Below, in pieces: positions 8,446 to 12,328 of a DNA stretch of 64,000 nucleotides. The notes beneath the pieces were generated by a model. It searched no databases, had not been told where the DNA came from, and saw nothing but the letters and a program-made list of their open reading frames with translations. How positions within the stretch are numbered: the first letter of the stretch is position 1; each line of letters opens with the position of its first letter. A program made the translations under genes and the position numbers. The stretch is from Tsuneonella sp. CC-YZS046 (GTDB taxonomy: Bacteria; Pseudomonadota; Alphaproteobacteria; Sphingomonadales; Sphingomonadaceae), in assembly GCF_035581365.1 (NCBI RefSeq), contig NZ_CP141590.1, forward strand, positions 2,600,001 through 2,664,000, in the 5' to 3' direction.

Positions 8446-8811
8446 TCAGTCGTCCCAAGGCTCCAGCACGCAGCCCCATCCTTCGCGGTAATAGGCCGTT
8501 TGCCGCGCCAGCATCGGCACGCGCGCGGTCACGCTCTGGTTGTCCTCGTCTTCGCTGAGGAACAGCATCCCCGGCCCATCCTCGACATCGATCGCGGCCC
8601 GGCACTCGCGCAACGGCAGGCCGGAGACATAGCGGCAGGTGCAGCCGATTCGCGCGCCATAGGCCGCCCCGATCGTGGAATAGCCCCCGATCGACTCGCG
8701 ATAGGCAAAGGCGACCACCCCGGCGCACAGCGCCAGGCCGACGACCGCAAGTGCCGGCGGCGACAATCTGCGGCGGGAGCGTTTCTTTGCGGTTGCCATC
8801 GAACCCTGCAT
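8446..8811 (-). CDS. Small membrane-anchored protein resembling a serine-hydrolase accessory module
   Basis: A 121-residue protein (117 if it starts at the ATG at 8799). A basic N-terminus (KKRSRRR) precedes one TM helix (ALAVVGLALCAGVVAFAY) and a periplasmic part of about 80 residues. That part contains CTCRYVSGLPLREC and VPMLARQTAYYREGWGCVLEPW. These stretches resemble the segment usually found at the N-terminus of beta-lactamase-type serine hydrolases (AKxLCSxVFVSGR ... AVYREGLGCTL), from memory of that family. Here it is a separate gene, divergent from a serine hydrolase gene only 19 bases away, so the two are probably functional partners. Four Cys residues may form disulfides. No catalytic motif of its own. 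Confidence 0.7.
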   Translation of the reverse strand: MQGSMATAKKRSRRRLSPPALAVVGLALCAGVVAFAYRESIGGYSTIGAAYGARIGCTCRYVSGLPLRECRAAIDVEDGPGMLFLSEDEDNQSVTARVPMLARQTAYYREGWGCVLEPWDD

Positions 8812-8830
8812 ACGGAAGAGATGCGCCGCG

Positions 8831-9985
8831 ATGAAACGGCCCGCCCCCCATATCCTCTCGGTTGCCTTGCGGCCAGCCCTGCTGCTGGCGCCAATCGCCC
8901 TGCTGGCTCTTGCGGCCTGCGGTCAGGCGGGCGGCTCGGCCGAACCGCCGGTGAGCGAAACCGCCCTGGCAGCCGTCTCGGCCAATCCCGGCGCGCCCCG
9001 CGCCCCTCTCGCCCGCGCGGTGGATGCCCTGTTCACCGCGGACGGCATCGGCGAAACCGACGCGGTGATCGTGATGCACAGGGGCGAAATCGCGGCGGAG
9101 CGCTATCGCGAGGGCTATGGTCCCAAGACCCGTTTCCTCGGCTGGTCGATGTCGAAGACGGTCACCGCCCTGGTCATCGGGATGCTGGTATCGGACGGGC
9201 GGCTGCATCTCGATGAATCGCCGCCGATCTCGCACTGGCGCCGGACAGGCGACCCGCGCGGCGAGATCACCCTGAAGCAATTGCTGCAGATGCGCTCGGG
9301 GCTGCGCCATACGGAACAGACCGATCCGCCCTATCGCGCCGAAACCGCGCGGCTGCTGTTCCTCGACGGGCGGGACGACATGGCGGCCGAAGCGGAGGCC
9401 GAGCCGCTCGAGGCGGAGCCGGGGCGCAAGTTCGAATATTCGACCGCCACCAGCATCATCCTGGCCGACATCGCCACCCGCGTGCTGACGCAGAGTGAAG
9501 ATCCGGCCCGGCGCCAGAAGGCCATGTCGGAATTCCTCTCCGCCCGGCTGTTCGGCCCGCTCGGGCTGCACTCCATGATGGCGGAATACGACGCCGCGGG
9601 AACCATGATCGGCGGCGCGATGATCTCCGCCAATGCGCGGGACTGGGCGCAGCTGGGCGAATTTCTCCGCCACGGCGGCAGCGTGAAAGGCTCGCAGATC
9701 CTGCCGCGAGGGTGGATCGACTTCATGCGCAAGCCATCCCCTCGCGCCCCGGATTACGGCGCGCATCTCTGGCTCAACCGTCCATCCGGCACGGATCGCA
9801 GCGTCCTGTTCGCCGAACAAGGCCCGGCCAGCGCGTTCGCGGCGATCGGGCATCTCGGGCAATATGTGATCGTATCGCCCGGGCAGCGGCTCACCATCGT
9901 AAGGCTGGGCAAGACCCGGGAGGAAGAGCGGGCGGCGCTGGTGGCGCGGCTGGCCGAGATCTCCGTGCTTTACCCGGCGAGCTAA
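8831..9985 (+). CDS. Lipoprotein serine hydrolase, class C beta-lactamase family
   Basis: A 384-residue hydrolase of the beta-lactamase/transpeptidase-like fold. The N-terminus is a lipoprotein signal with lipobox LAAC (Cys30). The nucleophile motif is SMSK (Ser106, Lys109) in FLGWSMSKTVTALVIG. The second motif is Y-S-T in KFEYSTATS, and the third is probably H-L-G in AAIGHLGQYVIV. It therefore looks catalytically complete, but this family contains esterases, amidases and peptidases, and the substrate is unknown. It lacks the N-terminal module that related proteins carry; a similar module is encoded by the divergent neighbour. Its 3' end overlaps the PhzF-like gene by four bases in a tail-to-tail arrangement. 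Confidence 0.85.
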   Translation: MKRPAPHILSVALRPALLLAPIALLALAACGQAGGSAEPPVSETALAAVSANPGAPRAPLARAVDALFTADGIGETDAVIVMHRGEIAAERYREGYGPKTRFLGWSMSKTVTALVIGMLVSDGRLHLDESPPISHWRRTGDPRGEITLKQLLQMRSGLRHTEQTDPPYRAETARLLFLDGRDDMAAEAEAEPLEAEPGRKFEYSTATSIILADIATRVLTQSEDPARRQKAMSEFLSARLFGPLGLHSMMAEYDAAGTMIGGAMISANARDWAQLGEFLRHGGSVKGSQILPRGWIDFMRKPSPRAPDYGAHLWLNRPSGTDRSVLFAEQGPASAFAAIGHLGQYVIVSPGQRLTIVRLGKTREEERAALVARLAEISVLYPAS

Positions 9986-10788
9986 CCCTCCCCCAGCCGG
10001 AAACGCGCTTCCATCACCGTGAAGCATTGTCCGCCCAGCCACACGCCATCCCCTTCCAGCCGGCACGCGAGACGGCCGCCCCGCGCCGATGCCTGACAGG
10101 CCGAGAAAGCCATGCGCCCCAGCCGGGCCGCCCAGAACGGCGTGAGCGCGGCATGGGCGGAGCCGGTCACGCTGTCTTCCGGCACGCCCGCGCCGGGCAC
10201 GAACACGCGGCTCACCACGTCGCTTTCACTCCCTTCGGCGGTGCAGATGAACTGATGCTCGCCCAGCGCGGCAAGGCCCGGCAGATCGGGCCGCAGCCCG
10301 CGCACCGCGGCTTCGTCCTCGAACAGGAAGATCGTGTAGCCATCGGGATTGCTCCAGCACTCCAGCGGCGTAGCGCCCAGCAGTTTCTCCGCCTCGGGCC
10401 ATGACGCAGGCTGCGTGGCGATAGCGGGCAATTTTAATTCATACCCTTGCGCCAGGCGCCGCACGTCGAGGACTCCGGCGCGTCCCGTGCGGAAGCGCAC
10501 CTCGCTCGCCTCCCGGTCGCTCTGGAGCAGCACATGCCCCGCCGCCAGCGTGGCATGGCCGCACAGGCGCACTTCGCAGGCGGGGGTGAACCACCGCAGC
10601 TCCCAGTCCGCCGCATCGCCGGCATCGGCGACCAGAAAGGCGGTTTCGGCGAAGTTGTTCTCTTCGGCAATGGCTTGCAGCAATTCGTCATGCGGCCATC
10701 GGTCGAGCAGCATGACCGCCGCCTGATTGCCCGAGAAGGGGCGGTCGGCGAAGGCATCGACATGCCAGTAGGGTATCGAGCCGGTCAT
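9982..10788 (-). CDS. PhzF-family isomerase/epimerase-like protein
   Basis: A 268-residue member of the PhzF superfamily (diaminopimelate-epimerase-like fold). Conserved features are the N-terminal HVDAFADRPFSGNQAAV and EENNFAETAFLV (the Glu of the NxxETAF motif is the general acid/base), then WFTPACEVRLCGHATLAAGHVL and, near the C-terminus, VPEDSVTGSAHAALTPFWA. No phenazine genes are nearby, so it is more likely one of the many PhzF-like isomerases of unknown substrate. It is the last gene of the pdxH-CDF-phzF operon; its ATG overlaps the CDF stop by four bases. Confidence 0.85.
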   Translation of the reverse strand: MTGSIPYWHVDAFADRPFSGNQAAVMLLDRWPHDELLQAIAEENNFAETAFLVADAGDAADWELRWFTPACEVRLCGHATLAAGHVLLQSDREASEVRFRTGRAGVLDVRRLAQGYELKLPAIATQPASWPEAEKLLGATPLECWSNPDGYTIFLFEDEAAVRGLRPDLPGLAALGEHQFICTAEGSESDVVSRVFVPGAGVPEDSVTGSAHAALTPFWAARLGRMAFSACQASARGGRLACRLEGDGVWLGGQCFTVMEARFRLGEG

Positions 10789-11714
10789 GTCTCAGGCCTT
10801 CCGGACCCGCGCGGCAGGATGTTGGATGGCCCTGGACCGGGATCGACATGCCCTTCCGGATCGGGATGAATGATGATCTCCACATCGGGAAATTCGGCTT
10901 TCAGCTTCGCCTCGATCTCTTCCATGATCCGGTGCGCTTCCCGCAAGGGGAGATTGCCGTCCACCCAGACATGGAACTGCGCGAAATCGCGCTGGCCGGA
11001 CGTGCGCGTGCGCAGATCGTGGACCCCGCGCAATTCGGGGTGCCGGGCCAGCGCCGCCAGCAGCCGCTGTTTCTTCTCTTCAGGCCATTCCCGGTCCATC
11101 AGATTGTCGACGACCCGCCGCGACGCCCCCCACGCCCCCCAGGCCAGCCAGAGTGCGATGAGCAGGCCGAACACCGGGTCCGCCCCCGCAATGCCGCCAT
11201 ATTGATCGAGCGCCAGCGCCGCGATCACCGCGAGATTGAGCAGCAGGTCGGACTTGTAGTGGAGATGATCGGTGGCGATGGCGAGGCTGCCGGTGCGGCG
11301 AATGACATGGCGCTGCCAGGCCAGCAATCCGAGCGTCGCCACCATTGCCACCAGCGACACCGCTATGCCGCTTTCGGCCGCTTCCGGGCGCGCGCCCTCC
11401 ACGAACTGGCCGATGGCGCGAACCGCGATCCCGAACGCCGACAGGGCGATCAGCACGATCTGGATCATCGCGGCCAGGGCTTCCGCCTTGCCATGCCCGA
11501 AGCGATGGTCCTCATCGGCGGGCATCGCCGCGATCCATACGCCGGCAAGGGTGGTCAGGCTGGCGACCAGATCCAGCGCCGTATCCGCCAGGCTGCCCAG
11601 CATCGCGGCGGAGCCGGTGGACCAGGCGGCCCAGGCTTTCAGCAGGACGAGAAATACCGCCACAGCTATGCTGGCGAAGGCCGCGCTCCGGTTCAGCCGC
11701 CCATGGTCGGCCAT
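10785..11714 (-). CDS. Cation diffusion facilitator transporter (FieF-like)
   Basis: A 309-residue divalent metal/proton antiporter of the CDF family. About six TM helices are visible. The first metal site is LADTALDLVAS (DxxxD in TM2). A conserved DEDHRFGHGKAEAL loop follows, and the second half-site is ATDHLHYKSDLLLN (HxxxD in TM5). The cytoplasmic C-terminal domain has HPELRGVHDLRTRTSG and FHVWVDGNLPLREAH, which build the dimer interface. Metal choice (Zn, Fe or Mn) cannot be read with confidence. I chose ATG 11714 (MADHGRLNRS); a GTG at 11723 would give a 4-base GTGA overlap with pdxH. Confidence 0.92.
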   Translation of the reverse strand: MADHGRLNRSAAFASIAVAVFLVLLKAWAAWSTGSAAMLGSLADTALDLVASLTTLAGVWIAAMPADEDHRFGHGKAEALAAMIQIVLIALSAFGIAVRAIGQFVEGARPEAAESGIAVSLVAMVATLGLLAWQRHVIRRTGSLAIATDHLHYKSDLLLNLAVIAALALDQYGGIAGADPVFGLLIALWLAWGAWGASRRVVDNLMDREWPEEKKQRLLAALARHPELRGVHDLRTRTSGQRDFAQFHVWVDGNLPLREAHRIMEEIEAKLKAEFPDVEIIIHPDPEGHVDPGPGPSNILPRGSGRPET

Positions 11715-11719
11715 GGATC

Positions 11720-12328
11720 TCACGGATACAGCAGCATGCTGTTCCAGCCGCCGCCTTCGCGGAAGAACTGCCTGCGCTCATGCAGGCGATGGGGCCGGTC
11801 CAGCCAGAACTCGATCCGCTCCGGCGCGAGCCGAAAGCCGGTCCAATGCGACGGACGTTCGACATCGCGCCCCTCGAAACGCTGCCGCGCCGCTTCGTAG
11901 CGGTCGAGGAAAGTCTCGCGCGCATCGAGCGGAGCGGACTGGTCGGACGCGACCGCGCCCAATTGCGAATCGCGATGGCGGCTGGCGAAATAGGCATCGG
12001 CCTCCGCCGCACTCACCGGAGCCAGCGTGCCTTCGATCCGCACCTGCCGGCGCAGCGACTTCCAGTGGAACAGCAGCGCGGCGTTGGGATTGGCCGCGAG
12101 TTCGCGCCCCTTCCGGCTGCGGGAATTGGTATAGAACACGAAGCCATCCGGCCCATGGCCCTTGAGCAGCACCATCCGCACCGAAGGAAGGCCGTCAGGC
12201 GTGGCGGTGGCCAGAGCCATCGCATTCGAATCGTTCGGCTCGCTTTCCCGCGCCTCGGCGAACCAGGCCGCGAAGATGGCGAAGGGATCGTCATGGGGGA
12301 TGGCGTCAGCCGCCTGTTCAGCCTGCAT
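11720..12328 (-). CDS. pdxH: Pyridoxamine 5'-phosphate oxidase
   Basis: FMN-dependent enzyme that makes pyridoxal 5'-phosphate from PNP/PMP, the last step of vitamin B6 synthesis and salvage. At 202 residues it has the usual size. The FMN/substrate region [19 protein letters not shown] is followed by [30 protein letters not shown], and the C-terminal [17 protein letters not shown] plus a short LLYP end. AGGAAA lies before the ATG. First gene of a three-gene operon with overlapping starts. Upstream, a 9-base-period direct repeat (GTTGACA twice, 12349-12364 on the plus strand) could hold operator or promoter elements. Confidence 0.95.

What the first reader, a model, noticed from the sequence alone, without database searches (positions are those of the whole stretch)
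8446..9985. Serine hydrolase with its usual N-terminal module encoded as a separate divergent gene
The 121-residue membrane protein carries CTCRYVSGL and YYREGWGCVL, resembling a segment normally fused in front of beta-lactamase-type hydrolases (AKxLCSxVFVSGR / YREGLGCTL). The neighbouring lipoprotein hydrolase lacks it. Split modules from two genes 19 bases apart suggest a two-part periplasmic complex with an inner-membrane anchor and a lipidated enzyme. I have not seen such a split described.
Basis: inference. Interest (0 to 1): 0.5.

Follow-up and report, generated by a model that had tools for sequence, protein, structure and literature searches.

The report
Serine hydrolase with separate membrane partner
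Next to a lipid-anchored enzyme of the beta-lactamase family lies a tiny membrane-protein gene whose counterpart in many other bacteria is part of the enzyme itself, so the two very probably work together as one two-part enzyme.

Summary
SMALL (window 8446-8799, minus strand, conserved start) is homologous to an N-terminal module of fused S12/PF00144 hydrolases (profile-profile E 1.9e-18; no Pfam model recurs on it). HYD (8831-9985) is a lipoprotein hydrolase with intact Ser106/Lys109/Tyr203 and no module of its own. Wherever context was checked, the separate module lies beside such a hydrolase: 142 of 142 family genomes (all divergent, matched parts 11-200 bases apart) and 16 of 16 distinct loci outside it, in three gene orders, some with overlapping stop and start codons. 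Eighty relatives found by catalytic domain alone comprised 50 fused, 6 split and 24 with neither; those 24 lack an export signal, and no module was found in 22 of their 24 (mostly metagenome-assembled) genomes. Separate modules carry four cysteines (46 of 46), fused ones rarely (1 of 61). HYD Glu252 is Glu in 97% of fused and all split enzymes, but Arg, Lys or Thr in the 24. Best reading: a two-subunit exported S12 hydrolase whose small subunit docks on and completes the enzyme, usually also anchoring it. Binding, activity and substrate are not shown; whether fusion or splitting came first is open.

The parts
8446..8799 (-). SMALL: module subunit, 117 aa from the conserved start MATAK (ORF from 8811 gives 121 aa). 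One N-terminal hydrophobic (transmembrane-like) segment, then a module with Cys57, Cys59, Cys70 and Cys114 (numbering of the 121-aa ORF), VTARVP and YREGWGC
   Evidence: invariant A53 C57 C59 G64 C70 D75 V94 T95 P99 A106 G113 C114 L116 in 28 sequences; hydrophobic segment before the module in 46 of 46 standalone modules
8831..9985 (+). HYD: lipoprotein S12/PF00144 serine hydrolase, 384 aa; lipobox LAAC (Cys30), Ser106-x-x-Lys109, Tyr203, GHLGQ 340-344, Glu252; no cysteine after the lipobox
   Evidence: AlphaFold2 model mean pLDDT 86.4, pTM 0.85, residues 10-51 under pLDDT 50
8800..8830 (.). 31 bases between the conserved SMALL start and the HYD start (19 bases if SMALL starts at M1); divergent genes, purine-rich ribosome-site-like sequence before each (by eye), no sigma-70-like match
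   Evidence: same divergent arrangement with 11-200 bases between the matched parts in 142 of 142 genomes

Best explanation
SMALL and HYD are the two subunits of one exported S12-type serine hydrolase. HYD carries the full catalytic centre. SMALL supplies, in trans, the small module that many exported relatives carry at their own N-terminus. Proposed working: SMALL is inserted in the inner membrane with its module in the periplasm, where its four cysteines pair among themselves (mature HYD has none to offer). The module docks non-covalently on the HYD catalytic domain, around Glu252/Trp272, and helps to shape or stabilise the substrate cleft, while its helix usually holds the enzyme at the inner membrane. 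In this family HYD adds a lipid and a floppy tether of some 20-25 residues. Shown here by computation: homology of the module, the gene pairing, three gene orders, absence of the module together with absence of an export signal in one clade, conserved catalytic residues. Inferred: binding, interface, disulphides, stoichiometry, activation, location. The substrate is unknown; an envelope ester or amide is the most likely class, because an envelope enzyme of the same fold, EstG, acts on a cyclic glucan.
For: Module homology: E 1.9e-18 to fused modules, 4.3e-25 to standalone modules outside the family. Fused, tandem and divergent forms of the same two parts. Co-occurrence in 298 genomes of the family: all 194 with the module at E<=1e-3 are among the 195 with a HYD match at E<=2e-60; the one extra, G252, carries a fused form. 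Adjacent and divergent in 142 of 142 with both places listed. Tandem pairs overlap or touch: ATGA in L045 and L066, TGATG in L047, L051 and L088, ATG 16 bases before the stop in L044. No module found in 22 of 24 genomes whose hydrolase has no neighbouring module; those 24 hydrolases have no hydrophobic N-terminus (0 of 24 at the cut-off against 43 of 46 split ones). Residue 252: Glu in 97% of fused, 100% of split, 0 of 24 module-less, where it is R, K or T. Fused L136 model: mean pLDDT 94, pTM 0.93 for module plus catalytic domain. SMALL and HYD distances correlate beyond mnmA (partial r 0.36, permutation p 0.001, 24 genomes).
Against: No binding or activity data. Model coordinates and aligned-error values were not available, so the docking face is not seen and the Glu252 site is a guess from sequence. 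The family-wide pairing sits in a conserved neighbourhood (mnmA directly on the other side of SMALL in 28 of 30 loci), so part of it is plain synteny; the other arrangements outside the family are the stronger evidence. The change at 252 and the loss (or absence) of export and module belong to one clade (support 99), so they are a single event. Exported-looking S12 relatives outside this group (L162, L176) have no module, so the fold as such does not need it. HYD lipoboxes carry mostly Gly or Ser after the Cys, which by the E. coli rule (recalled) means outer membrane, while SMALL looks like an inner-membrane protein; a complex would have to bridge, or HYD would have to stay behind.
Confidence: 0.72

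Rival explanations
1. SMALL is only a membrane tether: it binds HYD and keeps it at the inner membrane, with no part in catalysis or folding.
For: Hydrophobic segment before the module in 46 of 46 standalone and 57 of 61 fused proteins; no module where the enzyme lacks an export signal.
Against: HYD here has its own lipid anchor (lipobox pattern in 29 of 30). The conserved part is the module, not the anchor: in L044 the anchor of SMALL looks like a lipid, and fused L061 and L064 look, by eye, like a signal-peptide and a lipoprotein form. Glu252 of the catalytic domain tracks the module.
Confidence: 0.13
2. SMALL is a dedicated assembly factor or inhibitor: it helps HYD fold after export, or keeps it inactive until lipidated, and does not stay in the active enzyme.
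For: Found only with members that look exported, within this group; a cysteine-rich module suits the oxidising periplasm; overlapping genes in several tandem pairs suggest synthesis in step.
Against: In 50 of 80 loci found by catalytic domain the same module stays covalently attached, and in L136 it is modelled with high confidence together with the catalytic domain, which does not suit a transient helper.
Confidence: 0.1
3. The two genes are just neighbours: SMALL shares ancestry with the module but now does something unrelated, and synteny explains the pairing.
For: Conserved mnmA-SMALL-HYD neighbourhood in the family: mnmA adjacent in 28 of 30 loci.
Against: Outside the family the pair persists in other gene orders, 16 of 16 distinct loci, with overlapping codons in several; no standalone module without a hydrolase was found (the three weak candidates L065, L206, L207 lack the cysteine pattern).
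Confidence: 0.05

Closest known systems
Fused module-hydrolases of the S12/PF00144 family (I found no characterised member), e.g. L136, L087, L148
   Same: Same module, same catalytic subfamily, one polypeptide; two members, L148 and L149, occur inside the window's own family in one genus.
   Different: Module in cis; 1 of 61 has all four cysteines, 37 of 61 have two.
PIB-1 of Pseudomonas aeruginosa (PDB 8rlj), called a Zn-dependent imipenemase in a passage of PMC9948630
   Same: Nearest solved structure to HYD by sequence (E 2.9e-20) and first by fold (Z 35.2, rmsd 2.5, 311 aligned).
   Different: The module profile matches no PDB chain up to E 10. The fused model aligns to PIB-1 from model residue 31, so a shorter structural counterpart of the module in PIB-1 is not excluded.
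6-aminohexanoate-dimer hydrolase NylB and relatives (PDB 1wyb, 4gb7)
   Same: Catalytic fold; HYD E 1.7e-12 and 4.8e-14, Z 32.1 and 30.6.
   Different: The module profile finds none of these chains; 4gb7 also aligns to the fused model from residue 31.
EstG of Caulobacter (PDB 7u1b)
   Same: S12-like fold, envelope enzyme (Z 29.5-30.0 for HYD); substrate reported as a cyclic hexamer of glucose (passage in PMC11389396).
   Different: No sequence comparison made here; a module partner for EstG is not known to me (recall).
ClbP, inner-membrane S12 peptidase
   Same: Working analogy: a membrane part beside an S12 catalytic domain extends the substrate cleft and is needed for activity (abstract and passages of PMC9889268).
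   Different: Three-helix C-terminal membrane domain in cis; sequences not compared here.
MipA-MipB of Pseudomonas aeruginosa
   Same: Lipoprotein with a beta-lactamase fold paired with a second envelope protein from the neighbouring gene (abstract and passages of PMC10936184).
   Different: Partner is an outer-membrane barrel; MipB is reported to lack the catalytic SxxK motif.

Membership tests
S12 / PF00144 serine hydrolases | Match to PF00144 over the curated cut-off | tested here: met
   114.2 bits against a cut-off of 27
S12 / PF00144 serine hydrolases | Ser-x-x-Lys and Tyr catalytic motifs | tested here: met
   S106-M-S-K109 and Y203-S-T; Ser, Lys and Tyr invariant in 18 aligned relatives
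S12 / PF00144 serine hydrolases | Hydrolase activity | not testable with these tools
   no assay
Class C beta-lactamase (AmpC) | Match to the NCBIfam class C model and KTG third motif | tested here: not met
   no bla_class_C row for HYD up to E 10; the third motif region reads GHLGQ (that this is the place of KTG is recalled, not aligned)
6-aminohexanoate-dimer hydrolase (NylB) | Action on aminohexanoate oligomers | not testable with these tools
   fold and sequence similarity only
EstG-type glucan esterase | Orthology with EstG | tested here: inconclusive
   fold match Z about 30, like many S12 enzymes; no sequence test made
Module shared with fused hydrolases | Significant profile match of SMALL to the N-terminal module | tested here: met
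   hhalign E 1.9e-18, 95 columns
Module shared with fused hydrolases | First and last cysteine and the G-C end | tested here: met
   Cys57 and Gly113-Cys114; some fused modules lack one of the two cysteines (9 of 61 have a single Cys)
Module shared with fused hydrolases | Named in a curated domain library | tested here: not met
   no Pfam or NCBIfam row for SMALL up to E 10; in 50 fused members only PF00144 recurs in Pfam, 14 others hit one member each; in 10 outside standalone modules two Pfam families hit one member each
Two-subunit enzyme | Subunits bind each other | not testable with these tools
   no complex prediction tool and no experiment

The most novel reading that the evidence does not exclude
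An unnamed, widespread envelope domain is an obligate partner of a whole exported branch of S12 hydrolases: it works in cis in many phyla and as a separate four-cysteine subunit in alphaproteobacterial and some myxococcotal lineages. It completes the active enzyme through an interface around Glu252, and the lineage that makes the enzyme without an export signal has no partner and the opposite charge at that place. This would be a natural two-subunit S12 hydrolase with a dedicated activating subunit.
Probability: 0.5. Interest if true: 0.7.

Novelty: new variant of a known kind. Interest (0 to 1): 0.56.

Why it matters
S12 hydrolases (beta-lactamases, esterases, peptidases, nylon hydrolases) are normally treated as self-contained chains. 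If the exported ones of this branch need the module, then enzymes expressed without it, or with the small neighbour gene left out, may look inactive, and many 'serine hydrolase' annotations lack a half. The natural series fused, overlapping tandem, divergent and absent gives a ready experiment on how a domain becomes a subunit or the reverse.

Tried and rejected
A fused homologue in the window's own genome: not found. Three PF00144 places only; the 41% identical hit of the small protein at 2082479-2082628 has a stop inside and lies over a glycerol-kinase-like gene, so I took it as chance.

First named scan with SMALL alone found no relative, so the second and last scan used the catalytic domain, with the split hydrolase L046 as first sequence and one short motif as pattern.

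Lone modules without a hydrolase: L065, L206 and L207 were weak hits without the cysteine pattern and were rejected as chance. My note after one search took both its hits as fused paralogues; one search showed that L146 is another separate module beside its own hydrolase.

Direction of evolution: the tree without outgroup separates fused from split plus module-less forms, with one exception on each side at weak support; rooted on L162, L170 and L176 the split forms are basal (13 redundant rows dropped, 11 added), but long outgroup branches meet. AU tests reject neither 'fused one clade' (p 0.67) nor 'split one clade' (p 0.34) on 69 rows that I thinned from 111. Left open.

Intermolecular disulphide: disfavoured for the family, as none of 30 HYD has a cysteine after the lipobox region. 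Outside the family L050 shows two and L044 one; the count of three for L114 in that call is unreliable because the anchor motif was found too early.

Plasmids: no match to SMALL; HYD relatives there are below 43% identity in the 25 rows listed. Promoter and terminator scan: nothing.

Papers: the searches showed, in the rows listed, no description of this module, of the gene pair or of a split S12 hydrolase. Of the listed papers I saw titles and abstract starts, and passages of PMC13269358, PMC11389396, PMC9948630, PMC9889268 and PMC10936184. Most subscription papers and all preprints are missing from that library.

Full report
What is in the window. HYD matches PF00144 at 9.4e-33; SMALL matches nothing in Pfam or NCBIfam up to E 10. 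Most orthologues of SMALL in the alignment begin at MATAK, so the likely start is base 8799, 31 bases from the HYD start.

The module. In 28 sequences of SMALL the invariant residues are A53, C57, C59, G64, C70, D75, V94, T95, P99, A106, G113, C114 and L116. A profile of these, run over 385 genomes of the class, hit 26, four of them in the window's own family. Of the other 22 places, ten are separate small ORFs, all ten beside an S12 hydrolase; eleven are the N-terminus of a single long hydrolase ORF; one (L065) is chance. Profile against profile, SMALL to fused modules gives E 1.9e-18 and SMALL to separate modules outside the family E 4.3e-25.

A module-blind test. Of these 80 loci, 50 carry the module fused, 6 have it as a separate neighbouring gene and 24 have neither within the DNA held. 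Fused forms occur in many phyla by record title (Bacteroidota, Cyanobacteriota, Chloroflexota, Nitrospirota, Myxococcota, Pseudomonadota and others). In the genomes of the 24 without, the module profile finds nothing in 22; in one there is another separate module next to another hydrolase (L146), in one a fused paralogue (L147). These genomes are metagenome bins by their titles, with completeness not told.

Pairing. In 298 genomes of the window's family, SMALL is found in 194 and HYD at E<=1e-30 in 225; 195 of these have E<=2e-60 and the other 30 only 1e-30 to 6.5e-43. The 194 are all among the 195. The extra one, G252, has a fused form, and so has G167, which is among the 194, so the 194 are not all separate genes. 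Both places are listed for 142 genomes: 142 of 142 are divergent, with 11-200 bases between the matched parts. Of the other 52, G167 alone was looked at. Thirty loci read in full agree; mnmA is directly on the far side of SMALL in 28 of them, about 1 kb away in L021 and not in the DNA held in L031. Outside the family 17 loci, 16 distinct by module sequence, all have the hydrolase next door: divergent in 7 (L046, L048, L050, L052, L053, L069, L114), small gene first in tandem in 6 (L044, L045, L047, L051, L056 with the same module as L071, L066), hydrolase first in 3 (L079, L088, L146). Overlaps of ATGA or TGATG type in L045, L047, L051, L066 and L088 suggest coupled translation. Family genomes without the pair often hold a fused paralogue: a module hit in 24 of 51 searched (51 of the 104 without a SMALL hit were given), and 26 of 30 hydrolase paralogue loci read carry the module in the same ORF.

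Two signatures. First, all 46 separate modules have four cysteines with a CxC, against 1 of 61 fused ones (L136); 37 of 61 have two, 9 one and 14 three (counted on profile-matched columns; the 46 include near-copies and the L056/L071 pair). HYD of the family has no cysteine for them (30 of 30), so the pairs would be within SMALL (inference). Second, the module goes with export. A hydrophobic segment precedes the module in 46 of 46 separate and 57 of 61 fused proteins; of the four exceptions two have a cut or short N-terminus (L049, L063) and two lie just under the cut-off (L127, L141). Split hydrolases have a signal-like segment in 43 of 46, the other three just under the cut-off; the 24 module-less ones in 0 of 24. 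This holds inside the group; the outgroup hydrolases L162 and L176 look exported by eye and have no module.

Interface hint. Comparing catalytic domains of the 111 rows, residue 252 is Glu in 97% of fused, 100% of split and 0 of 24 module-less proteins (Arg 17, Lys 5, Thr 2); Trp272 (89%, 81%, 8%) and Asn316 (67%, 85%, 0) behave similarly; Arg at 77 does too (75%, 88%, 0), but the window's own HYD has Asp there. The reverse control (shared by fused and module-less, not split) gives a top score of 1.24, against about 1.97 for residue 252 from the fractions shown. The module-less proteins form one clade, so this is one event. A salt bridge from Glu252 to a conserved basic residue of the module (position 54 or 109 of SMALL) is my inference.

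Structure. The fused L136, chosen because it alone has all four cysteines, is predicted with mean pLDDT 94 and pTM 0.93: a long helix 2-45, a short helix 50-57 and four strands within 65-98, then a poorly ordered linker and the catalytic domain. HYD alone gives pLDDT 86 with residues 10-51 under 50. Best solved relatives are PIB-1, Lsa45, NylB and, lower, EstG. No PDB chain matches the module profile up to E 10. Coordinates were not provided, so packing was not measured.

History. In a 111-row tree the fused forms and the split plus module-less forms separate, with one exception on each side at weak support (L060, L069); the module-less group has support 99. Rooting on distant hydrolases puts the split forms at the base, which would make the fused enzyme the younger state, but the root is unreliable and neither grouping is rejected. 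So 'split' in the finding should be read as 'separate', without direction.

Working model and limits. SMALL anchors and completes HYD in the periplasm, much as the membrane part of ClbP extends its cleft (PMC9889268, abstract and passages). Homology, pairing, coupling with export signals and catalytic residues are shown by computation; binding, activation, place and substrate are not. Distances of SMALL and HYD correlate beyond mnmA (partial r 0.36, p 0.001, 24 of 30 loci after dropping near-copies and loci without a long mnmA match), which is only mild support.

Novelty. No curated domain found here covers the module, and seven literature searches listed no description of it or of the pair. 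The enzyme family is well known, so this is a new variant of a known kind: an S12 hydrolase that comes in two pieces.

Noticed in passing
window 9982-9985 and 10785-10788: HYD ends with a 4-base convergent overlap with the PhzF-like ORF 9982-10788 (-), which in turn overlaps the cation-transporter-like ORF 10785-11723 (-) by 4 bases (names by eye).
   Followed up: no
L136 3701-5086: A Flavobacteriales fused enzyme is the only one of 61 fused modules with all four cysteines of the separate form.
   Followed up: partly
L148, L149 (genus g22 of the same family): Fused two-cysteine enzymes at 41-43% identity to HYD occur in the window's own family; whether other members of that genus have the separate pair was not checked.
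   Followed up: partly
L123: A record titled Bifidobacterium breve (a metagenome bin) carries a fused enzyme that groups with Elusimicrobia in the tree; probably a mislabelled or contaminated bin.
   Followed up: no
L056 and L071: Loci from two collections with the same module sequence, probably the same genome; counted once among the 16 distinct loci.
   Followed up: partly
L150, L153, L155-L161 and others in L148-L177: A divergent fused subfamily (motif like GYKAxxLCSxIFNAGR, longer module) is common in family genomes without the separate pair; L154 falls below the profile cut-off but looks like it by eye.
   Followed up: no
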